From contig NZ_JADYUM010000001.1 of NCBI RefSeq assembly GCF_021531815.1, positions 124,001-188,000 of the forward strand: a DNA stretch of 64,000 nucleotides, given 5' to 3'. Origin of the DNA: Pseudoflavonifractor phocaeensis (lineage in GTDB: Bacteria; Bacillota; Clostridia; Oscillospirales; Oscillospiraceae). Numbering within the stretch: the first letter of the stretch is position 1; each line of letters opens with the position of its first letter. Shown here one piece after another: positions 1,859 to 22,383 of the stretch. A program made the position numbers and the translations under genes. The notes under the pieces were generated by a model, which saw only the letters and a list, made by a program, of their open reading frames with translations, made no database searches and had not been told where the DNA came from.

Positions 1859-1890
1859 CGGACCCGGACAACAGTCCGGGTCCGTTTTTT
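1859..1890. terminator. Bidirectional intrinsic terminator between the AlbA-like gene and spoVT 3' half
   Basis: An 11-bp perfect stem CGGACCCGGAC / GTCCGGGTCCG with an AACA loop is followed by TTTTTT on the plus strand and AAAA before it, so it can stop both converging genes. The SpoVT stop codon (1889-1891) overlaps the T-run. Confidence 0.9.
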
Positions 1891-2338
1891 AACTCTCCAT
1901 ATGACGTCCCAGGAACCCGGCGATGGACTGGGCCAGCTTGTACTCCACCTCTCCGTTCTGGAGGTTCTCTCCTTCCCCGGCAAAAATAACGCAGCCCAGC
2001 ACGTCTCCCTCCGACAGGATCGGCGCGGCAGTCGCCAGGGCAAAGCGGGTCTCCCCCTCGCACAGCGGCACGGCCTCCTCTCCCTCCTTGTGCTGATAGA
2101 TCTGCCGTCCCTCCATCAACTGTTCCAGCTGCCGGGAGATGGGCTTGTCCAAAAGCTCCCGCCGGGGTGCTCCGGCCGCCGCCACACAGCTGTCCCGGTC
2201 CGTGATCACCGTTACCCGACCCGTGGTACGGTTCAGCGTCTCACACAGCTGCCCCGCAAAGTCCGTCAGTCCACCCATCAGGGAATATTTTTTGAAGATC
2301 ACACCGCCTTCTTTATCCGTGTAGATTTCCAGCGGGTC
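1889..2338 (-). pseudogene. spoVT: spoVT 3' half (GAF effector domain), separated from its 5' half
   Basis: Codons 32-180 of spoVT. The translation aligns along its length with Bacillus SpoVT: DPLEIYTDKEGGVIFKKY is the end of the swapped-hairpin DNA-binding domain, GRVTVITDRD..., DKPISRQLEQLMEGRQ and the C-terminal VEYKLAQSIAGFLGRHME are the GAF domain. It has no start of its own here and is made only as the tail of the recombinase. The first part of the gene is at 18301-18393. It is intact, with no stop or frameshift, so it is better seen as an interrupted gene than a dead one. Confidence 0.93.
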
Positions 2339-4045
2339 CCCACTATTGACAACATTGACAGTAAAGACCTTGCTCGGTCGGCGGGTGGCCGATTGAACAA
2401 TTTCTGTGGGAAGATTTGAGATATCTTTACTGTCCTGCGGAAAATTTTCGCTTTCCTCCCATACTCCGGTAGCCAGCAATCCATCCACATCAGGTTTGAG
2501 CTGAATGTCGATGTGGTCCTCATAGACCGTAATGCGATCCACAATCAGGGAGATATCCCGTTTGTCCAGCTTTGGCTTTGTCAGAATGTCATCAAACACC
2601 TCGATGACCGTTTTGGCGGCCCGGTTGGCTTGCAGGAGGTGATTGCGGGAGTCAATGTTGACATCAATCTGTTGTTCCAGACCGGCGATGCGACGGGTCA
2701 GGTCCTTTTCCAACTCCGTGTATGCTTCATCGATGATGGCGGCTTCATCGGGAGCCTTTCCCATGGTGTCAATCAGCTTGCGCTTGTACATGGCCTTGAG
2801 CTGTTCCTTGCTTTCGGCCAGTTGACGCTCCAGAGAGTCAATGGCGTTTCCAATCTCCTGCTCCCGTTCCGGCTGCCGCTTGATGGCATCCTGAAGCTGA
2901 TCCATCATGGAGGCGGAATTGTCCCGGACAACCTGTACATAGCGCTTGAGCAGCTCATCCAGCTTGTCCACGCGGACATGGTGGCTGGTACAGCCTTTAC
3001 GCCCTCTGCGGTGGTAGGTGCCGCAGGTATAGGCAGGCTTCAAATCAGGGCGTGACATGGAGAACATGGGCGCTCCGCAGTCCCCGCAATACAGGAAACC
3101 GGAGTAGTCAGTAGCGTACTTTTTCTCGCCGCGGTAGTTGCTTCTGGAGCGAAGCTTGAGCTGCTCCTGCGTATAGGCAAAGGTGCGGGCATCAATGATC
3201 GGGGTATGCGCATTTTCGATGACGATATGCTCCTCCTCGTCCAATCGCTTATCTTTGCCATTGATTTTGGCTCTGGTATACTTTTTTTGCCGCAGTGTCC
3301 CAACATAAAAATCGTTGCCGAGAATGCTTGAGACGGAGATAATGGACCATTCTGCTTTGGACTTGAGCTTGGTATGCTGGCCCAGAGCTTCTCTCCATGC
3401 AATTTCATTGGCCCGTGGAGTTGGGATTCCCTTATCCGTCAGGTAATTGGCAATCCGCTTATATCCCCAACCGCTGTTGTATAAAGCGAAGATCTCACGG
3501 ACGATCTCGGCGGCGGGAGGGTCGTTCTCGTAGGTCATCTCCTTGGTGTTGAGCATCCGGTAGCCGTAAGGCACGGCGCAGACCCATTCGCCGTTTTTTT
3601 GGCGATGCTGAATGATTGCTTTGATTTTTTTGCTTGTATCCGTGACGGGCATCTCGTTCATCAAAAATTTGAACTGAATGAGCGTCCAGTCATCTTTTGC
3701 GGGATAGTCAATGCCGTCATTGATGGCGATAATGCGAACGCCTGCGTCGCGCAGGTTTTCCAGCTCCAGTAATCCCAAACTGTTGCGTCGGGAAAAACGG
3801 GAAAAATCCTTGATAATCAGAATTTGTGATTCGCCGGAGAATAACTTGGGCCGCATTTGCTGATAGCCCTCGCGCTGCTCAAATGTATATCCGGAGCGAT
3901 CACGATCCTCGTACAAGGTGAGTTTTGCTTGGGGAAAATGATTTGCGACATAGTCCGTTATGATGGCCTTTTGGTTTTCGATGGATGTATTGTCGCGATC
4001 CTGCTCAATATCCACAGAAATTCGGGTGTATCCAGATATGTTCAT
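1889..4045 (-). CDS. Large serine recombinase fused in frame to the C-terminal GAF domain of SpoVT
   Basis: This 718-residue protein has two origins. Residues 1-569 are a large serine recombinase: GYTRIS near the start holds the catalytic Arg8 and Ser10, KDFSRFSRR is the second resolvase motif, then a Recombinase domain, a zinc ribbon around residues 318-350 (YCGDC...CGTYHRRGRKGC), and a long coiled coil (about 375-470). From Asp570 (GAC at 2338-2336) the reading frame becomes SpoVT: GDPLEIYTDKEGG... to GFLGRHMES, i.e. the second half of the AbrB hairpin and the GAF sensor domain. The switch is at the att core GACCCGCT. The start ATG has GGAG 7 nt upstream and a TTGATT-17-TACAAT promoter. Enzymes of this class catalyse skin-type excision in other spore formers. 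In the excised circle the frame would end after 26 different residues (595 in total). Confidence 0.95.
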   Translation of the reverse strand: MNISGYTRISVDIEQDRDNTSIENQKAIITDYVANHFPQAKLTLYEDRDRSGYTFEQREGYQQMRPKLFSGESQILIIKDFSRFSRRNSLGLLELENLRDAGVRIIAINDGIDYPAKDDWTLIQFKFLMNEMPVTDTSKKIKAIIQHRQKNGEWVCAVPYGYRMLNTKEMTYENDPPAAEIVREIFALYNSGWGYKRIANYLTDKGIPTPRANEIAWREALGQHTKLKSKAEWSIISVSSILGNDFYVGTLRQKKYTRAKINGKDKRLDEEEHIVIENAHTPIIDARTFAYTQEQLKLRSRSNYRGEKKYATDYSGFLYCGDCGAPMFSMSRPDLKPAYTCGTYHRRGRKGCTSHHVRVDKLDELLKRYVQVVRDNSASMMDQLQDAIKRQPEREQEIGNAIDSLERQLAESKEQLKAMYKRKLIDTMGKAPDEAAIIDEAYTELEKDLTRRIAGLEQQIDVNIDSRNHLLQANRAAKTVIEVFDDILTKPKLDKRDISLIVDRITVYEDHIDIQLKPDVDGLLATGVWEESENFPQDSKDISNLPTEIVQSATRRPSKVFTVNVVNSGDPLEIYTDKEGGVIFKKYSLMGGLTDFAGQLCETLNRTTGRVTVITDRDSCVAAAGAPRRELLDKPISRQLEQLMEGRQIYQHKEGEEAVPLCEGETRFALATAAPILSEGDVLGCVIFAGEGENLQNGEVEYKLAQSIAGFLGRHMES
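2331..2338 (-). other. Attachment-site core at the spoVT 3' side of the element
   Basis: Minus-strand core GACCCGCT, coding GAC-CCG-CT(G) for Asp-Pro-Leu. The same 8 bp and frame occur at 18293-18300. Upstream on the minus strand lies the element arm ACTGTCAATG-N4-CAATAG; downstream is spoVT. Crossover is predicted at the GA dinucleotide (plus-strand TC at 2337-2338). Confidence 0.9.
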
Positions 4046-4093
4046 ATGATTTCTCCAATGTTGATTTTTAAATTCAAATTGAATTATAATAAC

Positions 4094-4122
4094 ATTGTAA
4101 ATCAGAAAGCACGAGAAATCAA
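4094..4122 (-). promoter_or_regulatory. Sigma-A-like promoter of the recombinase
   Basis: On the minus strand TTGATT (4122-4117), a 17-nt gap and TACAAT (4099-4094) precede the recombinase ATG by about 50 nt. No clear sporulation-sigma motif was seen here. Confidence 0.6.
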
Positions 4123-4153
4123 GCCAGTATCCATAAACAAAGTTTTCCTGTAG

Positions 4154-4182
4154 TTGACTCTTTTCCCTAAAATGGGTATACT
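4154..4182 (+). promoter_or_regulatory. Sigma-A-like promoter for the small ORFs divergent from the recombinase
   Basis: TTGACT (4154-4159), a 17-nt gap and TATACT (4177-4182) read rightwards, back to back with the recombinase promoter. Divergent control of integrase and a small factor is common in mobile elements. Confidence 0.65.
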
Positions 4183-4268
4183 ACAGATAGTATCTTTTTG
4201 ATTTGTTTCTTTTCTCGCTGCATACAGGCAGCTATGTTTCTGTTGTTTTTATGTGTCTTTGGAGAAGT

Positions 4269-4358
4269 ATGCCGTTTTTCAAAAGCGGCTATGATATGGT
4301 TTCGGAGGAGCGTGTCAATTGGCACGCTTTTTTGCACCTTTTTACGGCAGGAGAATAG
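4269..4358 (+). CDS. Possible 29-residue leader ORF
   Basis: A short frame starting MPFFKSGYDM, with GGAG only 4 nt upstream of its ATG, on the transcript from the 4154 promoter. It overlaps a hairpin AGCGTG / CACGCT followed by TTTTTT (4309-4334) that looks like an attenuator. It may be a leader peptide, or chance. No family was recognised. Confidence 0.35.
   Translation: MPFFKSGYDMVSEERVNWHAFLHLFTAGE
4309..4334 (+). terminator. Attenuator-like hairpin inside the leader of the small-ORF transcript
   Basis: AGCGTG-TCAATTGG-CACGCT is followed directly by TTTTTT. It lies between the promoter at 4154 and the small gene at 4400, and inside the 29-codon frame, so it could make expression of the next gene conditional. 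Confidence 0.5.
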
Positions 4359-4399
4359 TCTGGAGAAGTTTGGCAATACTCATCTTGGAGGTTGCCATT

Positions 4400-4591
4400 G
4401 TGATTTATCAAAAGAAGAACCCCTCTCTGAATGCCGTAGAACTATGGGTAACAAAGGGAACAGACGAAAGCGAAGTACAATCTGCACTTCGCAAGTATCA
4501 GCAGCAAGGCATATTTGTTTGCATTTTTCGCTCAGGCACAAAAGATTGCGCAGAACTGACCCAGGAGCTTTTAAGAATGAACCTGACATAA
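4400..4591 (+). CDS. Small protein of unknown function; candidate recombination directionality factor
   Basis: A 63-residue frame with a GTG start, GGAGG 8 nt upstream. The sequence begins IYQKKNPSLNAVELWVTKG and has a predicted alpha/beta pattern; it is basic in the N-terminal half. No family was recognised. It is divergent from the recombinase, with a strong promoter of its own and a terminator at 4646. Small basic proteins in this position often set the direction of serine recombinases (SprB of SPbeta is an example), so that role is proposed by position only. It could equally be an unrelated conserved small protein of mobile elements. Confidence 0.6.
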   Translation: MIYQKKNPSLNAVELWVTKGTDESEVQSALRKYQQQGIFVCIFRSGTKDCAELTQELLRMNLT

Positions 4592-4645
4592 TATTATAAG
4601 CAGCCAAGCTTGATTCCGCTTTATACAACCGAGATGAGATAAGAT

Positions 4646-4681
4646 ACCCACCAATGGGCCAAAATGGCTTCACTGGTGGGT
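4646..4681 (+). terminator. Terminator after the small ORF
   Basis: ACCCACCA / TGGTGGGT arms with an inner GCCAAAATGGC hairpin are followed by TTTTATGTTTTC. It lies between the small ORF and the converging tyrosine-recombinase-like gene. Confidence 0.7.
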
Positions 4682-4690
4682 TTTATGTTT

Positions 4691-5650
4691 TCAAACCGCC
4701 AGAATGTAGTTGCAGACCGTGACGTCCAGGCGCCAGTGCGACAGATGGAAGACGCTCACAGCCATGAGGGCCAGTCGGTTGTATGCGGTGGGAAGATTGT
4801 GTTCTTGGGCAAACTTGCGGTTGCGACCGCGGAGGTAGTAAGTGCCTTCCAACTTCTCAGGATCCCAATTCTTCTTTTTGTTAAATTGCCAGCGGGCTTC
4901 CAGTTCTTTGATCAGATTTTCCCGGAACGCCGGATCCTGAATACCATTTAAGTAATAAAGATAGGCCCGCTTGGCCTGGCATGCGCGGAGGTGGTGCAGG
5001 TCAATCTTGTTTTTCATCTCTTCACGGGTAAAGAGATACTCATCGTCATCCTTTTCCTCAAAATAGGAACGAATGAAATCAATATCAGATGGAAGAATCC
5101 TCTGATACTGAATCTTTCCCCCCTTTCCTTTGACCCAAATGCACAGGTGTCCGGATTCGTCTTTCACCAGATCACCACCGCTGAGCTTCTGGTACTCCCG
5201 GCGGCGGAGTCCCACTTTGGCAGCAAAGTCGTACAACCGCGGAGAAGCCTCTCGCTGTGCGTCCTTTCGCTTGCCCACAGCTTTTTCGCCGCGGCTGCGG
5301 GTATTTTGGGACACATGCCGTTCGGGCTTTTGGATTGTGCTCATATCAACACTCCAAACCCGGCAGACCGCTGCCAGATAGGTATGGATCGTACTGGCGG
5401 AATAACCTTCTTTGATCAGAAAATCAGCATAATCCTGGATGTGCGACTTGCAATCATCAAAGTGCCGGCATTTATATTTTCCTTTGCACCAAAGTCCAAA
5501 TTTAATGGCATGATTCTTATATTGCCGTTCGCTCCTTTTTGTGATATCAACGGGTTCCGCCGGATTGCCGTTCTCATCTTTTTCCGGAGGTTTCAGATAT
5601 TTTGACTTATCATATATGTGGGTGGATATTTCATACACTAAGCTTGCCAT
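4691..5650 (-). CDS. Tyrosine-recombinase-like (phage integrase family) protein
   Basis: A 319-residue protein with an N-terminal SAM-like core-binding region (SASTIHTYLAAVCRVW) and a C-terminal catalytic region. GLRRREY holds the first Arg, KGKGGKIQ the beta-hairpin Lys, LHHLRACQAKR the His-x-x-Arg box, and LSHWRLDVTVCNYI the second His/Trp and the likely Tyr nucleophile. AAGGAG lies 7 nt before the ATG. It is a second recombinase within the element, next to the serine enzyme. Its site is not obvious; it may act on another element, resolve dimers or regulate. Closely related proteins often appear in Clostridia mobile DNA (family knowledge). Confidence 0.75.
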   Translation of the reverse strand: MASLVYEISTHIYDKSKYLKPPEKDENGNPAEPVDITKRSERQYKNHAIKFGLWCKGKYKCRHFDDCKSHIQDYADFLIKEGYSASTIHTYLAAVCRVWSVDMSTIQKPERHVSQNTRSRGEKAVGKRKDAQREASPRLYDFAAKVGLRRREYQKLSGGDLVKDESGHLCIWVKGKGGKIQYQRILPSDIDFIRSYFEEKDDDEYLFTREEMKNKIDLHHLRACQAKRAYLYYLNGIQDPAFRENLIKELEARWQFNKKKNWDPEKLEGTYYLRGRNRKFAQEHNLPTAYNRLALMAVSVFHLSHWRLDVTVCNYILAV

Positions 5651-5774
5651 GTGGTCACTCCTTTCTATTATTAAGATGCCTGTTTGTCATCGGCAAACAG
5701 ACCCAGCCGTTAGGCACGTTCAATGCGTAACATATTTTTTAGACATCGGAGGGTAAGGCTCACATTAAGATAAA

Positions 5775-6130
5775 CCAAACTATTTCCTTCCGAAGGGGAA
5801 TATAGAAACCCAGGTATAAGCGGTTGACCAGACCACCTATACCCCATAGCTGGTTATTTTCCGCTGGGCGCGGCAAATAACCAGCTGCAGATACCCGACT
5901 TTCAGAGCAGGTTCCAATGTTGGAAGGCGTCCCGGAACACATTATTCCGGGGTCCGAAAGCGGGTATCTGAAGAAAATGCGATACACTATTCTCTTGTCG
6001 ATATCGCTGGACAAGGCTATCTTACTAACGGAGAAGCATAGCAAACCGGTCGCAAGCGACATAATCCCAACAAGCCTTGTAGGCTTGCGCGGAGGGGGTG
6101 GCTGGCCCCCTACGCTGAGCGTTGTATTTA
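5775..6130. ncRNA. Candidate large structured non-coding RNA
   Basis: Several long stems can be seen: AGCTGGTTATTT (5848) with AAATAACCAGCT (5874); CAGATACCCG (5887) with CGGGTATCTG (5961) enclosing two smaller hairpins, one being TTCCAATGTTGGAA and one CCCGGAACA...TTCCGGGG; GCTTG...CAAGC and GGGGG...CCCCC pairs follow to about 6110. No open frame of quality covers it. The strand is not determined. It lies upstream of the tyrosine-recombinase-like gene. It is not a domain V-bearing group II intron as far as I can see. Match to raiA, ROOL or other Rfam families could not be tested. Confidence 0.5.
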
Positions 6131-6165
6131 CCGTCACAACACACAATAAGGGGGTGTTTCGTCCC

Positions 6166-6273
6166 ATGGTTCATTTCTGTCCGCGGCCAAGCGGATCAGG
6201 CGCCAATCTCCGAGGGCGCGAGCGGGTCACGTTAAGCGGCGTGGTGCTGGGGGAGGGGGAAATTGGGACATGA
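6166..6273 (+). CDS. Doubtful small ORF (35 residues)
   Basis: ATG at 6166 is preceded by AGGGGGTG at about 9 nt. The product begins MVHFCPRPSGSGANLRG and ends GEGEIGT. It lies at the edge of the structured region, so the coding signal may be accidental. No family is known to me. Confidence 0.25.
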   Translation: MVHFCPRPSGSGANLRGRERVTLSGVVLGEGEIGT

Positions 6274-6700
6274 TAACAGCTGGTCTCATGTCGTATATAT
6301 ATAAAATCGTCAGGATGCAAAACTGCCTCCTGACGATGGATTTTCTGTATCTCACCCACCAAGGTGGGCACATTGTAATTCTCTTTGATAATCATTGTTC
6401 TGATTCCAAATGAATCAGAATTAAACTCTGTGGAAAATAAAAAAGTCGAAGTAACTATGGATAGACATAGTACACCTCGACACAAACAAAAAAGCAAGGA
6501 AACTAATCGGCATAACAGACACGATTGATAGAAACAGTGTGTGAAAAATGAAATCACACATAAGAAAGAAACTTTGTAAATCAAGTATACATCAAGATGT
6601 TTTAAAATGCAAGAATAATTTTAAATTAATTGGTTTTGAATCAAAAATAAGGATTTTAAAGCGGATATTGTTCCGAAAACGGAATAACACGGATAAAATA

Positions 6701-6724
6701 GGGAGCCGGATTTCTCCGGCTCCC
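6701..6724 (-). terminator. Terminator of the GHKL ATPase gene
   Basis: A 10-bp perfect stem GGGAGCCGGA / TCCGGCTCCC with a 4-nt loop; on the minus strand it is followed by TATTTTAT. It lies 18 nt beyond the stop of the gene. Confidence 0.8.
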
Positions 6725-6741
6725 TAAGTGAGTTCTATGGA

Positions 6742-8216
6742 TTATTCCACATCGGGCGGGAGGACAATGCCCTCCTCTTCCCAAGTGGACAAGGCAAAGT
6801 GGTAGGGGTTGCCCTTCTTGTCGTTCTGGCGGTTCAGCTCCGCCAGCAGAGCCTTCACCGTTTCGGGATGGCGCTGGGCGATGAGCACCGCCTCTCGAAC
6901 TTCCATGTCATCGGCGATGCAGCCGTCGTGATACATCCGTAACTGGTACACGTCCTCCGCCTTGCTGCCGCCGGCTTTCGCCTCGTACAGGGTGACGCCC
7001 TCCATACTGCTGACAAACAGATCTGACTTGATCTGTAGCTTCAGGCACTGGTACAGGTTCTTCTCGGTGGAGACCCGCAGGACGTCCTCTTCCGCCGCCT
7101 TTTTCTCCGCCAACAGGCGTACCAGCATCTGCTCACGCCCCTCCTCCTTAATGGGCTCGGGAATATTGGTCCGGATCCAGAGGAACAGCGCGGCCACCTT
7201 CTCATCGTCCTCGCGCAGACCGTTTTCGCTGCCTTGGTGTCGGGCAGGGCGTCCACCTGATCACTTAGGATATCGATCTGGGCGATGAAGCGGTTCTGGT
7301 TGGGGTGGAGCGCCTTCCCCCAGATTTCGTTGTACAACCCATGCTGGATGGCGCGGCCGTTGATTCGGATTTCCGCGCCGCTGGAGGCCATATTCGCCCT
7401 ATAGAAGAACGCGTTTTTCTTTCCCCGGCGGATGCTGCCGTAGCGGCAGCAGATGGTCACGCTGCCGCCGCCCAAGTCGGTTTCCACCGGGGGCAGCACC
7501 GTGCACCCATCCTTCCAGTTGGGCTCCAGAGGCTCGGTGATCCACTCATCATCGGGGACGCCATCCTTGCTGATGGTCGTAAAGATGATGGAGAACACCT
7601 CGTCCCGGAGCAGATTGGCGTAAGTGTAGCGCAGGGTTTCCTTCAGGTACGCTGCCGTCTCCGTGAAGGTGGGGGTATCCTTACGCCCGGTGGGTTTCAG
7701 GGAGAGGAACTTGTGCATGGGGCAGCGCACACGGACCACCGTACCGGTGCTGCCCACGATGTCCCCGCTGCCCGGGACAAGATACACGGGCATACCGATG
7801 CCATAGGGGCTTTCCACTCTCTGGTAGCGGTCGTGAGCGGCGTCCTCCACCGTCCGGGTCTGGATGCTCCAGTGCTGGGTCTCTCCGGCGTCAATGGACG
7901 CCAGGGCGTGCTTCAGGCCCATGCCGTGCTCATTCAGAAGGGACTGAGCGCAGGACCGCGCAGCAATGGTCAGGGCGGTGTCCAGATCCCCGATACCGGT
8001 GCCGTTGTCGCGGATCATGACATCCACATAGCTGTCGTGATCCTCCAGGGTGAGCTCGATGAGACCCTGGATCTTGTGGGCCAGAAAGTTGGAGATCGGA
8101 TTGTCGATCAGCTCGCAGAGGGTCTGACCGAAGTCGTGGAAGTTACCGCTGATACCCTCAAAAAGTTCCTTGCCGTCGGGGATGTTACTGCTCTTACGGA
8201 TGGTGATTTCTGTCAT
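6742..8216 (-). pseudogene. GHKL-type ATPase with nuclease-like C-terminal region, frameshifted
   Basis: With one extra base the gene would give about 491 residues. The N-terminal two thirds are a GHKL (Hsp90/MORC-like) ATPase: CELIDNPISN is the N box, RDNGTGI the G1 box and EHGMGLKHAL the G2 box. The last part contains LYEAKAGG...EDVYQLRMYHDG, which looks like the E-x-K and following Gln of a PD-(D/E)xK nuclease. The frame breaks at a run of four A on the minus strand (plus-strand 7223-7226): adding one A restores AKNGLREDDEKVAALFLW. ATG 8216 has GGAGG 9 nt upstream. ATPase-nuclease pairs of this kind occur in anti-phage systems, so a defence role is possible. It may be dead, phase-variable or a sequencing error. 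Confidence 0.75.
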
Positions 8217-8584
8217 AATGTTTTCCTCCAAAATTTGTTTTTTGAAAACAAAACGCACGGTGCAGGCCATCGTCCTACATCGTGCGGGAGGATCTTACAA
8301 CATTCCTCTTGCCCCGCCTCGTAAAAAAGGATATACTATCCCTATCGGTGCGGGGAATCCCGTTGTGTAGGTGGTCGCATCACCTGCGCAGGTGGTGGAG
8401 TGGTCGCAACACTCCATCACTGCCGTGTTTTTTATTTTCTGATTATATCTTACAATATCTGCACTCAGATATCAATGCACGAATCTCACGAATATCTGAG
8501 TGCAGATATGTTAAAACTGACCATATAGACAAAGAAGTCAGAATGACTTATACTGATACCATCAATAGAAGGTGGAGGTGCGTA
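8217..8584. promoter_or_regulatory. Divergent intergenic region with a paired palindromic operator
   Basis: Between the leftward ATPase gene and the rightward Arc-type gene. Two 18-bp near-palindromes, each ATATCTG-N4-CAGATAT, lie at 8455-8472 and 8492-8509, and are inverted copies of each other. Arc/MetJ-type proteins bind such repeats, so autoregulation by the next gene is likely. GC-rich hairpins at 8370-8420 (GGTGGTCGCATCACC and GGAGTGGTCGCAACACTCC) have no clear role. Confidence 0.6.
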
Positions 8585-9223: not shown

Positions 9224-9269
9224 AAAGAAGCGGCGGCATGGAACATTCTATTCCAGCCGCCGCTTCTTT
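9224..9269 (-). terminator. Terminator of the SLH surface-protein gene
   Basis: A perfect 14-bp stem AAAGAAGCGGCGGC / GCCGCCGCTTCTTT with an 18-nt loop lies 47 nt beyond the stop codon. Confidence 0.75.
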
Positions 9270-9315
9270 TGCGCTTGCTTTGCCGTTGCTTTGCAGCGGC
9301 TTTTCCTGTATAGAG

Positions 9316-12300: not shown

Positions 12301-14094
12301 CCAGGTCACACCGGTGACTCCGCTGGTAGCGTTCTGCTGAACCTGTTTGTTCAGCGTCACATAGCCGTTATAGATCTTGAAATACTGCGGCGCGCCTACA
12401 CCATTGTTCCCACCCAGTACATAGTCGCACGCTAAGGTGTGCTCGGCAGGCAGGATCAGCGAACCCAACTTGTCCGCGTTCACCTGAACGACACCGGACG
12501 GAATAGTATCCACCGTATCGCCGGTCAGCTTCCAGCCCATGAATTTCCATCCATCATTCTGCCCTTCCGCCGCATGGGAGACATACGGCGCGATGAAGCT
12601 GTTCTCAATTGATATTCCTTCGCCGGAATTTGGCTTGAAGCTGTAGACGTTGTTGTCCGTCTCACCATTGCCTGTTTGTCTAACCACATAAGGCAGACCA
12701 CCGTTGGGGTCATAGGTGATGGTCGGGTTCTTGATAAAGACAAAGTGCAGATCAACGCTTGACGTCAGGTTTCTCAGATAATAAGTGTAAGTGATATCGC
12801 CGTTAGTGCCTGTGGACTTGATCCACTTTCCGACCTTTTCTTCGTCAGTGGCAGATTCGCTGACTTCATTCCCGGCAAGCTGTAAGAAGTCGGTTTTCAA
12901 AGTGCCCGCGCCGTCGCGATAGGTGTAATAGAGTCCGACAAACTCGCAGCCCCCAGCAACGTCCGCCTGCTTGACGATCGCCTGTACGGTCAGTGTCTCG
13001 CCGTCTTTGATGTAAGTGGTCAGTCCGCCGGTGCTGCTGGCGTCGCCGCCGATGGCAGAGCCGTCGCTGCCTTTGATAACAGCGCTACCGTGGGTGGTAG
13101 AGCTTCCGGAGAAGGGATGGTAGAGCGTGAAATTGATGTTGTCCACGAAATTGCCGTAGGTCTTTGCCTTGTCAGCTGTCGTGATCGAATCCACATATCC
13201 CACGGACACAAAGCCGAACAGCGTCTTTGTTTGCCCCGCCGGAACAGTGTAGAGGTAATATTTGTTCAAATCCAGCCCGTTGCTCTGGGAACCGCTCGCA
13301 TTCTCTTCGTCGTTTTCCCCATTGGAGCCAAAGTGGCTCCACGGGTTTTCCGTAACGCCGGTGCCGGCCTTGTTGCTTGATAGGATCCAGATATGCCATT
13401 CTTCGGTATAGATCGTGCTGGGCGTCAGGCTGAAGGCGTTGTTGCCCTGATTGTCAAGAAAGGAGCCATGCGTACCGAATTTTTTACTGTAAAGGGTATA
13501 CTGCTGCGGTTCTGCGCCCGCTGCGATCCCGCTGATTGCATCTTTAATTTCGGGATTCGCATCAGAATTCAGCCAGTCTACCATCTGCATGAACTGGTCG
13601 CGCCCGTCCTTGCTGGGCTTGGAGGGGCGCTCACTTTGATTCGGCCCGATCACCAGAGCCATAATATCGGTGCCGTTGCGGGCGCCGTGATCCAGTCCCC
13701 ATTCGTACACGCTGGAGTCGTAGGTGTCAACGATCTGGTAGAGCGTACTCTCCTCGTCGGCGTTCAGCTCCGCCGCATATGTCCCGTCCGTCGGCTTCAG
13801 CTCAACACCCGGTATATAGATACCGGTATTTTTTCGGAACAGCTCGATCTTGCCCTGGAACGCCGTGGTGTTCCAGGCAGGAACCGCGCTCTGATCCGGC
13901 TGGCTATAATCACCGCTCCAGCTCTGCCCCTCCTCGAAGCTGCCGTTGAGCAGATTCTTCTGGATGCTCTGGGTGCCTTCCGCGGCATAGGCCGTGCCAC
14001 AGTACAGGCCTGCAGCAAGGGCAATCATCAAAAGAATGCTGAAAAGCACAGCGCCCAGTCTGTGCCACCACTGTTTTTTCTGTGTAGTTTCCAT
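9316..14094 (-). CDS. Giant SLH-anchored surface protein with InlB-type and MBG-type repeats
   Basis: A 1592-residue exported protein. Residues 1-38 form a signal peptide (basic KKQWWHR, hydrophobic core, cut after AYA). A beta-rich region starts NGSFEEGQSW and runs to about 350. Listeria-Bacteroides (InlB B) type repeats follow (GYVFEGWYGEDGK, YKFVGWYNAEGTP) around 680-860, then several MBG-type repeats (KLTINKATRTITATD, ITKRPVTITVDNAEKSY) to about 1300, a DUF11-like domain (GSDVVWTVTVENNGSHDAKG), and three SLH domains at the C terminus (WPYTDADAKAWYHD, FDDVAEDAWYTEAV, AEYAIPAMQWACGSG) that bind the cell-wall polymer. AGGAG lies 9 nt before the ATG. It is the largest cargo gene of the element and lies beside a sensor kinase system. 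Likely an adhesin or S-layer-associated protein; the ligand is unknown. Confidence 0.9.
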   Translation of the reverse strand: METTQKKQWWHRLGAVLFSILLMIALAAGLYCGTAYAAEGTQSIQKNLLNGSFEEGQSWSGDYSQPDQSAVPAWNTTAFQGKIELFRKNTGIYIPGVELKPTDGTYAAELNADEESTLYQIVDTYDSSVYEWGLDHGARNGTDIMALVIGPNQSERPSKPSKDGRDQFMQMVDWLNSDANPEIKDAISGIAAGAEPQQYTLYSKKFGTHGSFLDNQGNNAFSLTPSTIYTEEWHIWILSSNKAGTGVTENPWSHFGSNGENDEENASGSQSNGLDLNKYYLYTVPAGQTKTLFGFVSVGYVDSITTADKAKTYGNFVDNINFTLYHPFSGSSTTHGSAVIKGSDGSAIGGDASSTGGLTTYIKDGETLTVQAIVKQADVAGGCEFVGLYYTYRDGAGTLKTDFLQLAGNEVSESATDEEKVGKWIKSTGTNGDITYTYYLRNLTSSVDLHFVFIKNPTITYDPNGGLPYVVRQTGNGETDNNVYSFKPNSGEGISIENSFIAPYVSHAAEGQNDGWKFMGWKLTGDTVDTIPSGVVQVNADKLGSLILPAEHTLACDYVLGGNNGVGAPQYFKIYNGYVTLNKQVQQNATSGVTGVTWTTDNSGTTPSYANLHKGLTMVAQWRWRQAFVPQKHTDEGYVASAEGGTVEITSVTNTSDENYNDAYNSNGGKAYFAAGNEQVTVKATPASGYVFEGWYGEDGKLITTNPIYSYAVTTNSVKTCYARFSNTVTQTYKRQVMDVDSRAWEETTDDTIGTLGRYTYADAVGTPISSTARAGEGYKFVGWYNAEGTPVDDSMLTNDGATISYTITETKTYYARFKKNVAITVTGNSETVTYDGNPHSVSGYSVAYTWNGTTSNSKPDFLTLTEPDSNAPCVTASETNAGTYTMALSARDFSVKNSSGVYAYTLQVIPGKLTINKATRTITATDYNAPYDGEAHGITVTGTTEGDTVTYRTDNATWTGTPPTRTNVQEAKTIWVKVENPNYKTATASATITITKRPVTITVDNAEKSYHEPDPTFTGSITSGSLVNAGDLGTITYSRTNPADSGVGIYQDVLTASYTANGNYEVTLVPGTFTIKSTVISGAAVVVSGGSKVYDGTPFAVTATLTNEATGYTIRYSTNNGTNWSETAPSVTNAAEGEKTVLVKATQTGHVDLVCDPVTIQITKRPITITANSGEKFYDGTALTSGFTYTLPTSTLPHEGLVGGQELTATTTGSLTEIGSVDNTVGDVVIKRDGQDVTENYAITRVDGLLTVKAAEGIAVSKTPAQIEVYAGSDVVWTVTVENNGSHDAKGLTLTDDLEGIAITAPAGIDPADFSVPAGGTVEFTVKLPDAAAGTYVNHVSVTQPKADSTTVKLAEADAAAVTVRTPPAPSTGGNRPTPPTKEETYIMDYRDCTANTACPIWPYTDADAKAWYHDGVHFCLENGLMVGYGDNTFKPDAPTTRSMLIVMLWRLNGSPVVNYALDFDDVAEDAWYTEAVRWAKSEGVAGGYGNGKFGPNGTLTREQMVTILFRYAQCKGYDVSVGEYTNILSFGDATTVAEYAIPAMQWACGSGVVGGKDAADGSGLILDPKGSTTRAQMATMVMRFCAEIVK

Positions 14095-14252
14095 GAAAAG
14101 TTACTCCTTTGTTTCTCTCCTAAATTATTTTATCCATGCTCGTCCAAATCCAGGGCGAGAAACATTTGCTTTTTATCGTATAGCCGGCAAGGTACAACAA
14201 GCCGACAACAAATATGCGAAAAGCACTCTTGCAGAATGATGCGGTGATGCCC

Positions 14253-14608
14253 TTACTCTGCGTGTCCGTCCATTTCCCACAGGGCGCGGGTCGGGTCAAA
14301 GCCGGTCACGCCGGGCGTATCCACCTCCTTGGGTTATCCGCTGGATATTGAGAATGCTCCCCATACACAGGCTTTTCGCAGTCCGGGTACGCCATCCCGT
14401 AAGACCCCGCTCAGACTCTCCCGCAGCAGTTCTGCCCACCCAGATTCCCCATATCAAGCTGTAAGAAAACAGCATCCACACGGTTATTACGCACATCCTT
14501 TGGCGCTTGCAGCGGGTTGGTATGCTGGTAGATCACACTGCCGGGAAACGCTTCCAACAGCAGTCTGGTCAGCTCCGTAAGCCTTTCCCGGTTTTAATCC
14601 ACTGCCAT
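14253..14608 (-). pseudogene. Degenerate response-regulator-like gene
   Basis: Reading from ATG 14608 the frame is MAVD, then a stop in place of codon 5, then NRERLTELTRLLLEAFPG and a receiver-like stretch RNNRVDAVFLQLDMG, before a stop at 14411. In another frame the sequence continues with GVTGFDPTRALWEMDGHAE and a stop at 14253. The pattern helix-strand-helix-DAVFLQLDM resembles the receiver of the adjacent regulator, with Gln where the Asp is expected. It appears to be a broken paralogue or a fused remnant. No function is expected. Confidence 0.65.
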
Positions 14609-14700
14609 AAATGTTATTATATCACTTCCCATTCCCAAATGTCTACATTGTAATTTTAGCAATCCGAACGTTGCAGAACCGTTGCATATAGGCAAAAATA

Positions 14701-14728
14701 GGGCAGGAAATCAAAAAATTTCCTGCCC
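14701..14728 (-). terminator. Terminator of the two-component operon
   Basis: An 11-bp stem GGGCAGGAAAT / ATTTCCTGCCC with a 6-nt loop; on the minus strand ATTTTTG follows. It lies 20 nt past the response-regulator stop. Confidence 0.85.
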
Positions 14729-14747
14729 TGTTACGCGGTATTGTCCC

Positions 14748-15518
14748 TCAAGTTATCTGCTGCAGCGCGGCATTGGTGTATTCGCTCCAACCGTATTGGG
14801 CCATGTATTCCCCAAGATAGGCGTTTCCCATCTTTTTGCCGTCACACCAGTCGTAATAGTCGCAGCGGATGGCCTGGGGTACGATGCCCAATCTGCCCCG
14901 CTGCTGGGTGATGACATCTGCACACCCCGCCGCTTCCAGCGTGTCCAGCAGATCCTTCCGGAGACTGCGCAGATAAGCCTCATGGTTGTCGTCACCGAAC
15001 AGATTGGTGATGATCTCGCCATTGGTGCAGAGGGCGCCCTTCCGGTCCGCCAGATAGGCCAGCAGCTCCTTCGTCTTGTGGTATTTGAACTCCAGGGGAA
15101 TGCCGTCCAGGTAGACCTCAAAATTTCCGAAACACTGCACTTGAATGCGCTTCTCTTCCGGTACCGGGCGGCGCAGATTGTCCAGCTCTCTCTTCACCTT
15201 TTCCGCTGTGATGGGTTTCATCAGATAGCCGCTGGCGTGAAGGGCAAAGGCGCTGCCCTGGTAGCTGGAAAAGCCTGTGGCAAAGATGAGGTTGACGTCC
15301 GGATTGCGTAGCTTGAGCTGCTCGGCCAGCTCCACGCCGTTGATACCCGCCATCTCCACATCCAGAAAGGCCACGTCACAGCTATGATCCCGGAGGAACA
15401 CCAGCACATCCTCGGCATAGGAAAAGCCGTGCAGCTCCGCGTTTGGGGCACAGGCGCGGATCGCGGCCATCAGCCCTTCCAGCGCCAGTTCTTCATCATC
15501 CAACGCGATGATCTTCAT
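14748..15518 (-). CDS. Response regulator, receiver plus transcriptional-activator type output domain
   Basis: A 256-residue regulator. The N-terminal receiver starts MKIIALDDEEL (acidic pocket), FLDVEM holds the phosphorylated Asp near residue 54, FATG the switch Thr/Ser region and LMKPI the Lys. The C-terminal part (QVQCFGNFEVYLDG, KTKELLAYLADRKG, RSLRKDLLDTLEAAG) is an OmpR/SARP-like winged helix as found in two-domain activators of Clostridia. ATG 15518 overlaps the end of the kinase gene by 23 bp, so the two are translationally coupled. The likely target is the SLH protein gene or other surface genes nearby; this is inferred from position. Confidence 0.88.
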   Translation of the reverse strand: MKIIALDDEELALEGLMAAIRACAPNAELHGFSYAEDVLVFLRDHSCDVAFLDVEMAGINGVELAEQLKLRNPDVNLIFATGFSSYQGSAFALHASGYLMKPITAEKVKRELDNLRRPVPEEKRIQVQCFGNFEVYLDGIPLEFKYHKTKELLAYLADRKGALCTNGEIITNLFGDDNHEAYLRSLRKDLLDTLEAAGCADVITQQRGRLGIVPQAIRCDYYDWCDGKKMGNAYLGEYMAQYGWSEYTNAALQQIT

Positions 15519-17325
15519 TTCTGCCCGCCTCCTTTTTCGGGATTGTGACCACAGCCGTGGTCCCATTGCCGGGGGCGCTGGTGATGGAAAGGGTCCCATT
15601 TACCATATTTTGTAGCCGCTCCCGCACATTCTTGATGCCGATATGCACCTTGCCGTCCTCCGGATACCGCTCGGGGTCAAACCCCACCCCGGTATCAATG
15701 ACCATGACAAGGTACGCCTCCTCCGTCTCCCGGGTGGAGATGGTGACGGAGCCGCCGCCCCGTTTCTTGGTCACTCCGTGCTTCACGGCGTTTTCCACCA
15801 GAGGCTGCACCGTCAGCGGAGGCAGCATAAAGTTGACGATGTCAATATCGTAGATGATCTCCAGCGTCTTGAACCGGATCTTTTCCAGGGAGAGGTAGGC
15901 CTGGATATGCTGATACTCCTCTTCAAAGGGGATGGGCTCTTTCTGCTCAATGGATTTCATGTTGTTGCGCAGATAGTCGGAAAACTTGTCCACCGTCTCC
16001 TGGGCCAGCTTGGGATCCCGGTCACAGAGATGGTAGATGGAATTGAGCACATTATAGATGAAGTGGGGCTGCAGCTGGCTGAGGGTGATGGCGATGCGGC
16101 TGTCCTCCAGTTCCCGCTCCATCTGCTTTGCCTGTATGGATCCCCGGTGGTCGATCACGATATTCCTGACTACCCCCACCATATACAGCACGAACAGCAG
16201 GGCAAACACGGCCTTTGTGCAGGTGCCGTGGGAATAGATGCTCCGGCCCACGCCGGCAATGTCCAGCAAAACAGCAGACAGCAGGAATATATGAGAAAGC
16301 AGGACGATATGGTTTTTCTTTTTCTGATGATACCATTCCACAGCGGTACAGGCGATCAGCAGCGGACAGAGTACCATCTGCGAGACCGCCCAACAGAAAC
16401 CCGTGTCGTAGATGACCGTAACGCCGATAAAAGACGACATAATCAGAGTGGCGTCCAGCAGGGCGGAGAGGAGCATGGCGGCATTCGCAGTTTTTCGCGG
16501 TATTCCCGTAAGGGTATCGCACACACTCAGACCCAGGCAATAGACGGCCAGCATCATACACAGCTGCCGGGCGTAGGTGTTGAATACGACCAGTTCACTG
16601 ACAAAAGAGATCCCAATGGTGTCCAGTATCACAAAGCCGCCCATAAAAAAGGTCAGCAGACCGCACTTCCACAAGCTGCCGCCCATCGGGACACGCAGAA
16701 AGCAGGAGGCCAGCGCCGCGCCCAGCAGAATCAGCGCCGTGATGACGAGCACAATTCCCACGATCTGGAGGGGAGAGCTGTAGGGTTTCAGGAAGGATTC
16801 CAATATATAAGATGTGTTGGGGGAACCATAGAGCGTGTTCAGAAAGTCCCGGTATGCGCTGCTGTTGCCATGGCTGTGTGGGTTATGCAGACGGAACTCC
16901 ACCTCGTCCTCTGTGGTAATGCCGGGAGACATAATATAGTTCCATCGGCTGCCGCACAAAGATGGCTCCAGGACAAGCCCCTTCTCTTCGTACTCTGATA
17001 TGGTGTCAATGGACAGAAATTCACCATTGAGGTAGCTGGTGACGCCGATGTGGTTCTGGTAGTAGTAAAGCCGCCCTCCACCCATACTGTCATAACTGAG
17101 ATGTCCCCGAAGAAACAGGTCTCCATTCAGAGCGTTCAAATCGGCATTGTCATTCAGCGGATACCATGTCTCTCCATCCCGGCTGTATTCCCCGGTAAAG
17201 GTCTGGAGCATCGGCTTGGACAGAGAGGACTGGTTGCTCTTCAGTATCATGGTAAGCAGGCAGGTGGCGGCAAGGAGGAATAAGATCAAGCTCACAAGCC
17301 AGTTGTATGTTCGTTTGCTTTTCAT
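15496..17325 (-). CDS. LytS-type membrane sensor histidine kinase
   Basis: A 609-residue kinase. A first membrane segment (WLVSLILFLLAATCLLTMI) precedes an extracellular sensor region of about 180 residues, followed by seven or so membrane helices in the 7TMR-DISM style (about 220-410). LQPHFIYNVLNSIYHLCD is the phospho-acceptor His box of the LytS (His_kinase) family and PPLTVQPLVENAVKHG with DTGVGF the ATPase N and G1 boxes. ATG 17325 has AAGGAG 7 nt upstream; a longer frame has no ribosome site. It pairs with the overlapping response regulator. The signal is unknown. Confidence 0.9.
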   Translation of the reverse strand: MKSKRTYNWLVSLILFLLAATCLLTMILKSNQSSLSKPMLQTFTGEYSRDGETWYPLNDNADLNALNGDLFLRGHLSYDSMGGGRLYYYQNHIGVTSYLNGEFLSIDTISEYEEKGLVLEPSLCGSRWNYIMSPGITTEDEVEFRLHNPHSHGNSSAYRDFLNTLYGSPNTSYILESFLKPYSSPLQIVGIVLVITALILLGAALASCFLRVPMGGSLWKCGLLTFFMGGFVILDTIGISFVSELVVFNTYARQLCMMLAVYCLGLSVCDTLTGIPRKTANAAMLLSALLDATLIMSSFIGVTVIYDTGFCWAVSQMVLCPLLIACTAVEWYHQKKKNHIVLLSHIFLLSAVLLDIAGVGRSIYSHGTCTKAVFALLFVLYMVGVVRNIVIDHRGSIQAKQMERELEDSRIAITLSQLQPHFIYNVLNSIYHLCDRDPKLAQETVDKFSDYLRNNMKSIEQKEPIPFEEEYQHIQAYLSLEKIRFKTLEIIYDIDIVNFMLPPLTVQPLVENAVKHGVTKKRGGGSVTISTRETEEAYLVMVIDTGVGFDPERYPEDGKVHIGIKNVRERLQNMVNGTLSITSAPGNGTTAVVTIPKKEAGRNEDHRVG

Positions 17326-17706
17326 ACAGAACTCCTTTTCAACCCAAGCAGGCTTCTTCAGAGAGCCGGCCTGCCGTTTCCGGCTGGCTACCCTTTCGTC
17401 ATGGCAGGGTGTAGCGCACATTGTAACCATTAGTATAGCAGGAAAGAATCTATTTGGCACTTATTTTTTCAAGCGCCATCAACCGTATGTGTCTGAGAGC
17501 CCTCCAAGCGGCTTATCGCCCCTGTGCCCGGGTAGATCAAGATGATGGGCAGTCCTTTCCGCGCAGCCTTCTTGATTTTTCTTTGCAACAGTTACAACAC
17601 CAATATCAGATTCATTATGACATTATGGAGTTTTTGTTTTATAGAACTCGGACAGTCACGATGTCCAAAGAATGTGCAGATGTTCATTTGTAACTCCTAT
17701 TTTATA
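17326..17706. other. Intergenic region upstream of the sensor kinase
   Basis: About 380 bp without a supported gene. A rightward frame at 17454-17693 lacks a ribosome site and recognisable motifs. A TATACT on the minus strand near 17432 may be the -10 box of the kinase promoter, but its -35 is poor. Confidence 0.35.
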
Positions 17707-17807
17707 TAGTGATTTGTCACTAATAATATACCATATTTCCGCGGGTTAGTGAAATATCGCTAATAGGAGCGCCTCCATTCGTTTATCATATCAATAGTGA
17801 TAAATCG
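17707..17807 (+). promoter_or_regulatory. Repeated operator upstream of the XRE regulator
   Basis: Three related sites: TAGTGA-TTTG-TCACTA (17707-17722, perfect dyad), TTAGTGAAATATCGCTAA (17746-17763, near dyad) and TAGTGATAAATCG (17795-17807). Tandem dyads just before a helix-turn-helix gene suggest autoregulation in the manner of phage repressors. Confidence 0.65.
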
Positions 17808-17822
17808 ACCGGAGGCTTTCAA

Positions 17823-18065
17823 ATGAACACCAGAGAAGCAATAGCCAATCGAATACGGCAGCTCTGTAAAGAACGCGGCATCACCCCAAATGGGCTGAGC
17901 AATCTCGCCGCAGTTCCGCAAGCTACGGTGAAAAGTATCCTTAACGGCGAAAGCCAGAACCCGGGGACGGTAACGATTAAAAAGCTATGTGATGGATTGG
18001 AGATCACATTGGGCGAATTCTTCTCCACTCCGGAATTTAATGAGTTGGAACAGGAAATAAAGTAA
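17823..18065 (+). CDS. XRE-family helix-turn-helix regulator
   Basis: An 80-residue Cro/CI-type protein. Helix-turn-helix: EAIANRIRQLCKERGITPNG, LSNLAAVPQATVKSILNGES, then TIKKLCDGLEITLGEFF, which is the usual XRE end. GGAGG lies 7 nt before the ATG. It is the last gene before the right end of the element, and reads towards the att site on the plus strand. A repressor at the edge of an element commonly sets its quiescent state; whether it controls the recombinase 14 kb away (but neighbouring in the circle) is open. Confidence 0.88.
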   Translation: MNTREAIANRIRQLCKERGITPNGLSNLAAVPQATVKSILNGESQNPGTVTIKKLCDGLEITLGEFFSTPEFNELEQEIK

Positions 18066-18103
18066 CAGGCAACAGCAGATTGATTGAACTGCCGTTGCCT
18101 GTT
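18064..18103 (+). terminator. Terminator of the XRE gene
   Basis: AACAGGCAACAGCAG / CTGCCGTTGCCTGTT form a 15-bp stem with one mismatch, then TTTATATTTG. It begins at the stop codon. Confidence 0.85.
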
Positions 18104-18219
18104 TTATATTTGATGTAAAACAGCGACCACCGACTTTTAATAGCCGGCGGGCGCGATTGTTCCTATTTTCACGAAGTAAAACATTGCCCCACGCGTATTG
18201 CGTCGAACAAGGCCTTTCC

Positions 18220-18393
18220 TCAGCTACCCAGTCGTTTTCCGAGTTCAGTTATGTACTGGATTGCTCTTTCTTCAACTGTCAATGATTTCAATAGCGGGTC
18301 GCCTTCCCTTATTCTCATGGTGCGCCGAATCTCCTTTGGGATCACGACCCGTCCCAGATCGTCGATCCGGCGCACGATCCCTGTTGCTTTCAT
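18220..18393 (-). CDS. spoVT: SpoVT 5' half: truncated AbrB-type DNA-binding domain with an element-encoded tail
   Basis: The product is 57 residues. It starts MKATGIVRRIDDLGRVVIPK and continues EIRRTMRIREGDPL, which is the highly conserved SpoVT/AbrB N terminus; after the att core the frame runs into element sequence (LKSLTVEERAIQYITELG) and stops. GGAGGG lies 9 nt before ATG 18393. The second half of the swapped-hairpin fold and the GAF domain are missing, so the short protein is probably not a working regulator. The rest of the gene is at 1889-2338. The tail residues become the C terminus of the recombinase in the excised circle. Confidence 0.93.
   Translation of the reverse strand: MKATGIVRRIDDLGRVVIPKEIRRTMRIREGDPLLKSLTVEERAIQYITELGKRLGS
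18293..18300 (-). other. Attachment-site core at the spoVT 5' side of the element
   Basis: Minus-strand GACCCGCT, preceded by spoVT (AGGGAAGGC) and followed by the element arm ATTGAAATCATTGACAGT. With the arm at the other end this makes the dyad CAATAG-N10-CTATTG inside the larger half-sites. Confidence 0.9.

Positions 18394-18877: not shown

Positions 18878-18953
<76 letters not shown>

Positions 18954-22307: not shown

Positions 22308-22383
<76 letters not shown>

What the first reader, a model, noticed from the sequence alone, without database searches (positions are those of the whole stretch)
1889..18393. A 15,962-bp skin-like element interrupts spoVT and should be removed precisely to rebuild the gene
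Seen: spoVT codons 1-31 at 18393-18301 and codons 32-180 at 2338-1889, same strand, both ending in the shared core GACCCGCT in the same frame; a large serine recombinase of the SpoIVCA class is encoded at one end. Known: skin elements in sigK and a few other sporulation genes are removed by such enzymes. Inference: this is a developmental element in a sporulation gene for which I do not recall a described case.
Basis: partly seen in the sequence, partly recalled or inferred. Interest (0 to 1): 0.97.

Follow-up and report, generated by a model that had tools for sequence, protein, structure and literature searches.

The report
Spore-gene-splitting element with recombinase–gene fusion
In this bacterium and dozens of its relatives a DNA element splits spoVT, a gene known to matter for making spores, at one fixed codon and joins its own recombinase gene in frame to the second half; it is likely mobile and is predicted to cut itself out cleanly so that spores can form, which would be surprising because spoVT is thought to work inside the future spore itself.

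Summary
spoVT codons 1-31 (18393-18301) and 32-180 (2338-1889) lie 15,962 bp apart, same strand, sharing GACCCGCT; no other SpoVT match over the cut-off was found in the genome. The same fusion at the same codon is in 21 of 64 genomes of the genus, 30 of 34 carriers among 394 genomes sampled in the order, and 117 of the 120 best protein hits. Rejoining an element's ends gives a near-palindromic attP lying inside the recombinase gene, and swaps the SpoVT part for a conserved ~25-aa tail; a natural protein with such a tail exists (P0052). Recombinase and SpoVT halves have different histories, so these look like repeated integrations. Both spoVT halves show purifying selection, and the window's copy keeps a forespore-type promoter-like site. 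Excision is inferred, not shown; cell type and timing are untested. The published sporulation elements seen here sit in mother-cell genes; spoVT is a forespore gene in studied species, so loss there would hit the germ line. Verdict: real, widespread, apparently undescribed variant of the skin kind.

The parts
18301..18393 (-). spoVT 5' part, codons 1-31 (start codon to Gly31)
   Evidence: residues 2-34 of the reading frame match TIGR02851 positions 1-33
18438..18466 (-). sigma-F/G-type (forespore) promoter-like site GCATA-17-GATACTA, 51 nt upstream of the spoVT start
   Evidence: 11 of 12 consensus positions, p 0.01 against 100 shuffles; the same score and spacer in 4 of 4 uninterrupted relatives examined, 47-48 nt upstream. 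Consensus recalled
18293..18300 (-). shared core GACCCGCT, right copy (attR side)
18220..18297 (-). tail-coding stretch: continues the spoVT 5' part in frame now; would be the recombinase C-terminus in the circle; its first bases are the right arm of attP
   Evidence: 30 tails compared, pN/pS 0.41 in frame against 1.13 and 1.39 in the other two frames of the strand
2331..2338 (-). shared core GACCCGCT, left copy (attL side)
1889..4045 (-). fusion open frame of 718 aa: large serine recombinase running in frame into spoVT
1889..2338 (-). spoVT 3' part, codons 32-180 and stop
2336..18297 (.). the inserted element, 15,962 bp from junction to junction
4319..4591 (+). 90-aa ORF, weak homologue of the small companion gene of the element family; candidate recombination directionality factor (function inferred)
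   Evidence: (HMM E 2.7e-4; companion found in 13 of 13 complete elements, 9 of which were used to build the HMM). This ORF has no NCBIfam or PHROG match at E<=0.1; it was not scanned with Pfam
4691..5650 (-). cargo: 319-aa protein with weak tyrosine-recombinase similarity
   Evidence: (NF040815, E 2.3e-5, 24.1 bits against a cut-off of 220)
7041..8270 (-). cargo: 409-aa protein with weak HATPase-type similarity, overlapped in another frame by ORF 6742-7197
9316..14094 (-). cargo: 1592-aa protein with SLH, MBG, Flg_new_2 and DUF11 domains
14748..15599 (-). cargo: response regulator
15496..17460 (-). cargo: sensor histidine kinase
17823..18065 (+). small Cro/C1-type (XRE) regulator at the right end

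Best explanation
A DNA element encoding a large serine recombinase, whose gene runs in frame into spoVT, splits spoVT at codon 31/32; it was likely inserted there by that recombinase and is predicted to excise precisely during sporulation and so rebuild the gene. Shown by sequence: precise ends with a shared core, a near-palindromic junction (attP) that can only be assembled from the two ends and that lies inside the recombinase gene, the in-frame fusion, the conserved alternative tail, recurrence at the same codon with discordant recombinase and SpoVT histories, and conservation of both spoVT halves. Inferred: (1) the free circle makes the recombinase with its own ~25-aa tail, which would carry out attP x attB integration; (2) integration replaces that tail by the SpoVT C-terminal part; (3) attL x attR excision by the fused form, probably helped by the small companion protein, would restore spoVT and the tailed recombinase in one step; (4) because spoVT is a forespore gene in studied species, excision would have to happen in the forespore or before division, so the element would need to re-integrate after germination or be lost from that lineage.
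For: Geometry and frame. Fusion at the same place in 21 of 64 genus genomes, 28 of 31 named loci, 30 of 34 carriers among 394 genomes of the order, 117 of the 120 best protein hits, the only ones listed of 7,999. Both spoVT halves on one contig and strand in 13 elements, about 15 to 81 kb apart (in G021 the 5' part matched only over residues 9-36); one of them, G012, is a single 2.9-Mb contig. attP: 28 of 29 own-end pairs have the same centre of symmetry; mean 16.7 of 23 positions complementary against 10.0 for shuffled arms; none of 20,000 re-pairings of ends reached the own-pair score. Tail: pN/pS 0.41 in frame, 1.13 and 1.39 out of frame. Free form: P0052 (596 aa) and, internally deleted, P0121. 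Mobility: of 2,850 protein pairs 50 with recombinase >=95% and SpoVT half <75% identical, 7 the other way round; 13 changes of state on the spoVT tree, at least 7 forced by supported branches. Function kept: 13 of 13 distinct interrupted 5' parts encode the same 30 residues, pN/pS 0.020 against 0.023 intact; 3' part 0.207 (19 of 21 sequences) against 0.300 (22 of 28); forespore-type promoter-like site; SpoIVA in 43 of 43 and SASP in 41 of 43 genomes, 35 of the 43 interrupted. Of 32 carriers outside the genus, a continuous spoVT was seen only in G186 and G250, the two whose recombinase has another C-terminus.
Against: No excised form was seen directly: attP pattern in 0 of 394 genomes and in 0 viral contigs; the window's own predicted circle-form C-terminus matched no protein. 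P0052 stands for a 90% cluster, so its 86 members on 102 contigs were not checked one by one. Gain and loss look frequent, so much of the purifying selection may predate each insertion. The spoVT 5' part was found in only 23 of the 30 carriers outside the genus that lack a continuous gene. G417 (stop codons in both halves) and G098 (halves on opposite strands, not fused) look decayed or rearranged, and G253 has its halves on opposite strands. No convincing sporulation-type promoter was found before the recombinase in the 13 elements. The window's companion gene is a weak match on the other strand.
Confidence: 0.7

Rival explanations
1. A plain integrative element that uses spoVT as a conserved docking site. 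It excises only at a low rate for transfer, not as part of sporulation; carriers sporulate through the few cells that lost it, or sporulate poorly.
For: Variable cargo; relaxases in G012 and G361 and a NikA-like protein in G361; frequent gain and loss; no convincing sporulation-type promoter before the recombinase.
Against: No continuous spoVT was seen in 30 of 32 carriers outside the genus; the 35 interrupted genomes tested all have SpoIVA; both halves are conserved; in C. difficile a spoVT mutant gave no heat-resistant spores (PMC3789822, passages read).
Confidence: 0.22
2. spoVT is permanently broken in these lineages, which have given up sporulation or replaced SpoVT; the fusion is a by-product.
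For: Seven of 64 genus genomes show no spoVT match (at most an AbrB-like paralogue); two of them, G035 and G009, 97% and 94% complete, still have SpoIVA; decayed or rearranged cases G417, G098.
Against: Purifying selection on both halves in interrupted genomes, as strong as in intact ones; SpoIVA 43 of 43 and SASP 41 of 43. Caveat: part of that selection may be older than the insertions.
Confidence: 0.06
3. An assembly artefact or chimeric contig.
For: spoVT codons 29-36 resemble an Illumina adapter (recalled) and five genus assemblies break or lose bases there.
Against: The window's contig is 285 kb; G012 is one 2.9-Mb contig with both halves; P0030 lies on a 3.18-Mb contig of Intestinimonas butyriciproducens; same junction with different recombinases in 27 genera.
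Confidence: 0.01

Closest known systems
skin elements in sigK (B. subtilis, C. difficile), SPbeta in spsM, vfbin in spoVFB, an element in spoVR, gin in gerE, phi3T-type prophages in kamA, yin in yabG (PMC10747680, PMC5025042, PMC6957869, PMC5595907; passages read)
   Same: Recombinase-bearing element inside a sporulation gene, short shared core, removal restores the frame; inverted repeats at the site (reported for kamA).
   Different: The targets named in those passages are mother-cell genes; spoVT is a forespore gene in studied species. Here the recombinase is fused in frame to the target's 3' part, attP lies inside its gene, and the family spans many genera. Excision is reported for several of those, only inferred here.
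Archaeal 'suicidal' tyrosine integrases, SSV type (PMC8371274, passages read)
   Same: attP lies within the integrase gene, so integration rewrites that gene.
   Different: Those are tyrosine recombinases split into two pseudogenes on integration; here a serine recombinase loses only a short tail and gains a host part. [quoted passage not shown]
Integrative and mobilizable elements (IMEs)
   Same: Serine recombinase plus relaxase in G012 and G361, and a NikA-like protein in G361.
   Different: No relaxase among the nine window ORFs scanned with Pfam; ORFs 5760-6167 and 6171-6584 were not scanned.
Heterocyst elements in nifD, fdxN, hupL (named in PMC6957869)
   Same: Recombinase family (NF041201 XisF, E 1.1e-22, below its cut-off); developmental gene rebuilding.
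   Different: Other bacteria and targets; excision here not shown.
SPbeta integrase YokA structures 9dxh, 9dxd
   Same: Recombinase part aligns over residues 2-456, E about 1e-18.
   Different: The molecule name of 9dxd suggests an engineered fusion to a second SPbeta protein (YotN, the directionality factor by recall); here the natural fusion partner is SpoVT.

Membership tests
skin-type intervening element of a sporulation gene | Interrupts a sporulation gene within its coding region; removal restores the frame | tested here: met
skin-type intervening element of a sporulation gene | Encodes a large serine recombinase | tested here: met
   alignment (Ser10, taken as catalytic from recall, invariant in 12 of 12)
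skin-type intervening element of a sporulation gene | Encodes a recombination directionality factor | tested here: inconclusive
   conserved companion gene in 13 of 13 complete elements, weak in the window; no structural match at E<=0.001
skin-type intervening element of a sporulation gene | No intact copy of the gene elsewhere | tested here: met
   (98.84% complete draft genome)
skin-type intervening element of a sporulation gene | Target expressed in the terminal mother cell (usual, 'almost all' in PMC6957869, rather than defining) | tested here: inconclusive
   points against: spoVT is sigma-F/G controlled in C. difficile (PMC3789822) and sigma-G, forespore in Bacillus (PMC5061766); window promoter-like site of that type. 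Expression in this host not measured
skin-type intervening element of a sporulation gene | Excision during sporulation | not testable with these tools
   no expression, PCR or read data
Integrative and mobilizable element | Relaxase/mobilization genes | tested here: not met
   window: none among nine ORFs scanned, two small ORFs unscanned; met in relatives G012 and G361
Archaeal suicidal integrase | attP inside the integrase gene, tyrosine recombinase split into inactive parts | tested here: not met
   attP inside the gene yes, but serine recombinase left nearly whole
SpoVT (TIGR02851) | Full-length profile match of the rebuilt protein | tested here: inconclusive
   207.9 bits over positions 1-180, below the curated cut-off 235.9, as is the intact congener at 203.5

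The most novel reading that the evidence does not exclude
The recombinase carries a built-in memory of its own position. Free, it ends in a 25-aa tail and integrates; integrated, it carries the host's SpoVT sensor domain in place of the tail, and that borrowed domain times or directs excision. Because spoVT is needed in the forespore, the element leaves the germ line itself at sporulation and re-enters after germination: a reversible germ-line rearrangement, not the disposable mother-cell one of skin.
Probability: 0.22. Interest if true: 0.95.

Novelty: new variant of a known kind. Interest (0 to 1): 0.86.

Why it matters
The published explanation of skin-type elements is that they sit in mother-cell genes, so the excised copy dies with the mother cell and the spore keeps the element (PMC6957869). 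A family placed in what is elsewhere a forespore regulator would break that rule and makes the question testable: does the spore lose its element, or does the element come back? A recombinase whose C-terminus is exchanged with each integration is a natural experiment in how serine integrases choose direction, and a possible source of self-switching recombinases. It also bears on sporulation in this order, where 34 of 394 sampled genomes carry the family, and it explains database entries that name a recombinase after stage V sporulation protein T (P0030, P0051).

Tried and rejected
Contig ends at codons 31-38 as a sign of a mixed excised/integrated population (G010, G026, G032, G060): rejected, because the site resembles an Illumina adapter and one contig ends in what I recall as a transposase adapter; these four are more likely intact genes split by assembly. 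G025 and G077, which hold a fused and an intact spoVT: rejected as excised/integrated pairs of one strain, the two copies are only 82.8% and 80.8% identical. Search for free elements in viral contigs and in 394 genomes: nothing. Phage and plasmid records with P0052: matches only below 60% identity. Circle form of the window's own recombinase: nothing. Fold of the companion protein: model with mean pLDDT 87.1, pTM 0.50, no structural match at E <= 0.001. Sporulation-type promoter upstream of the recombinase: none convincing in 13 elements; sigma-A-like sites recur but do not beat shuffles. Separating selection before and after insertion in 13 pairs: dN/dS of the SpoVT half 0.04-0.11, but co-inheritance not proven. 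Rows dropped before counts: one search left out G098 and G417 and could use only genomes with both ends legible (29); one search removed identical sequences and, for the 3' part, kept only the commonest length; one search left out G098; one search compared 76 of 118 proteins that could be split. Literature: ten searches; no title or abstract start in their listings is about an element in spoVT, in a library that lacks most subscription journals.
Full report
What is there. On the minus strand, spoVT starts at 18393 and runs for 31 codons to 18301; codons 32-180 lie at 2338-1889. Both ends share GACCCGCT in the same frame, and the interval between the two copies is 15,962 bp. Joining the flanks in a script gives a 180-aa SpoVT without a break. 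It scores as well against the SpoVT model TIGR02851 as the uninterrupted protein of a congener (207.9 and 203.5 bits, both under the curated cut-off of 235.9). In the assembled genome (98.84% complete, 45 contigs) the only SpoVT_C match over the cut-off is this one.

The recombinase does not stop at the junction. ORF 4045-1889 is a single 718-aa frame: Resolvase, Recombinase, Zn-ribbon, then SpoVT_C at residues 593-717. On the other side the spoVT 5' part does not stop at the core either but runs on in frame into the element, to a stop at 18220.

It recurs. In the genus (64 genomes) I count from the printed matches: 32 with an intact spoVT (G071 matched from residue 8 on), 21 with recombinase sequence running in frame into SpoVT (two of these, G025 and G077, also have an intact copy of different sequence; in several the contig ends inside the recombinase), one (G008) with the 5' part plus tail only, four split by contig ends near the junction (G010, G026, G032, G060), one (G085) with a short gap there, and seven without a spoVT match. 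All 21 join at GDP-LE. In a sample of 394 genomes of the order, 34 genomes in 27 of 168 genera carry a recombinase of this family at E <= 1e-120. Of these 34, 30 are fused to SpoVT: 28 of the 30 loci read, plus G123 and G442 from their open frames. G186 and G250 have another C-terminus; G098 and G417 are not cleanly fused. In a phylum sample, 4 of 398 genomes match: the window's own and three of one other genus, all fused. In a named scan, 28 of 31 loci are fused to SpoVT, one (L120) is fused in frame into what looks from recall like a type IV pilus/GspE-type ATPase gene, one (L123) has another C-terminus, and one (L140) is cut by the contig end. In the protein database 117 of the 120 listed hits are fusions; P0045, P0052 and P0066 are not.

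Carriers and intact genes. Of 32 carriers outside the genus, a continuous spoVT was seen only in G186 and G250, exactly the two whose recombinase is not in spoVT. Of the other 30, the 5' part was found in 23 and not in 7 (G092, G106, G129, G161, G177, G213, G370) at E <= 1e-9. G173 has a further SpoVT-like N-terminal match in a 152-aa frame that I did not examine.

attP lies inside the recombinase gene. Rejoining the element's ends gives a near-palindrome whose left arm encodes the last recombinase residues before the core and whose right arm encodes the first residues of the tail. In 28 of 29 pairs the centre of symmetry is at the same base (G201 differs); the mean is 16.7 of 23 complementary positions against 10.0 for shuffled arms (maximum 15 in 2,000). 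Own pairs exceed permuted pairs (16.55 against 15.50 of 21; none of 20,000 permutations reached it), with and without the window. The window's arms, which differ from the consensus, still match each other at 18 of 21. Where both ends lie on one contig the arms are about 15 to 81 kb apart, so this agreement is best explained by a circular stage.

The tail. The stretch after the core encodes about 25 residues of a recognizable pattern. Over codons 10-22, beyond the palindrome, pN/pS is 0.41 in this frame and 1.13 and 1.39 in the other two (30 tails; G098 left out). G098, G123 and G417 have other or no tails. P0052, 93% identical to the window's recombinase over 80% of the query, ends in such a tail and has no SpoVT part; it is the form expected of the circle. 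P0121, closer by eye to another recombinase lineage and internally deleted, has a similar tail. The window's own predicted circle form was not found, and the attP pattern was in none of 394 genomes nor in the viral contigs.

The elements look mobile. Among 2,850 protein pairs (76 of the 118 proteins that could be split, the window included), 50 have recombinases at least 95% identical but SpoVT halves under 75% (down to about 50%), and 7 have SpoVT halves at least 95% identical with recombinases under 75%. On a tree of the spoVT 3' part (50 sequences, 21 interrupted) the state changes at least 13 times, 7 of them forced by supported branches; the label is only weakly clustered (29 of 500 shuffles as low).

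What else they carry. In 13 complete elements the recombinase alone is shared by all in the first comparison; a small gene is in 9. A profile built from those 9 finds it in the other 4 as well, in the window weakly (E 2.7e-4) and on the opposite strand to the recombinase, and in 23 of 31 named loci. Two members of the family had no Pfam match over a cut-off, and none in NCBIfam or PHROGs among those scanned; the model of one has no structural match at E <= 0.001. I take it as the candidate directionality factor by position and conservation only; in G201 it lies far from the recombinase. G012 and G361 have relaxases, G361 a NikA-like protein. The window carries a sensor kinase, a response regulator, an S-layer-domain protein and a small XRE regulator.

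Is the split gene still used? The 13 distinct interrupted 5' parts from the genus encode the same 30 residues while differing at many synonymous sites (pN/pS 0.020; 28 intact ones 0.023). The 3' part has 0.207 (19 sequences) against 0.300 in intact genes (22). The window's spoVT keeps a sigma-F/G-type promoter-like site about where four uninterrupted relatives have it. SpoIVA is in 43 of 43 and SASP in 41 of 43 genomes tested (not found in G371 and G129, both interrupted), 35 of the 43 being interrupted. The caveat is that insertions come and go, so part of this selection may be older than the insertion.

How it likely works. Shown: site, core, palindromic joined ends, fusion, tail, recurrence, discordant histories. 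Inferred: the tailed recombinase integrates; the fused one excises, probably with the companion protein; excision rebuilds spoVT. In C. difficile spoVT depends on sigma-F and sigma-G and its mutant gave no heat-resistant spores (PMC3789822, passages); in B. cereus it is essential for sporulation and is described as forespore-expressed under sigma-G (PMC5061766, passages). If the same holds here, the gene must be whole in the forespore, so the element cannot rely on a dying mother cell as skin does (PMC5025042, PMC6957869, passages). Either it excises in the forespore lineage and re-integrates later, or it is lost from that lineage and regained by transfer. The patchy distribution fits both.

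Novelty. The passages read name sigK, spsM, spoVFB, spoVR, gerE, kamA and yabG as interrupted sporulation genes. None of the listings of ten paper searches shows a paper on an element in spoVT; the library is partial. A survey of serine-recombinase targets has no 'SpoVT' in its main text (PMC10083194, term search); its supplements were not seen.

Noticed in passing
spoVT codons 29-36 in several genomes: L099/L100 (G010), L101/L102 (G026), L104/L105 (G060), L097/L098 (G032), L103 (G085): The DNA here resembles an Illumina flow-cell adapter (recalled); five assemblies break or lose bases there, which may make spoVT look broken in public genomes.
   Followed up: partly
L120:137-2320: A relative of the recombinase is fused in frame, at a similar GE motif, into what looks from recall like a type IV pilus/GspE ATPase gene, so the same fusion may have been turned to another target.
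   Followed up: no
L123:2292-4259 and L146: Relative recombinase with another C-terminus, not in spoVT; genome G186 (L146) has a continuous spoVT.
   Followed up: partly
L189-L190 (G253), L192-L193 (G098): The two spoVT halves are on opposite strands, in G253 with what look by eye like housekeeping genes between; an inversion or misassembly involving the element.
   Followed up: partly
L191 (G123), positions 60 and 10576: Two spoVT 5' parts about 10.5 kb apart on one contig, one running into a tail-like stretch at the contig end, the other into a short different end; perhaps nested or successive insertions.
   Followed up: no
G035 and G009 (same genus): No spoVT match in genomes 97% and 94% complete that keep SpoIVA.
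   Followed up: no
L065-L069 (G074): An element of about 81 kb in the same spoVT site; one of its proteins looks by eye like a sugar-nucleotide enzyme shared with G201 and G429.
   Followed up: no
window 18878-18953 and 22308-22383: Two tRNA-Ala (GGC) genes near each other just outside the element.
   Followed up: no
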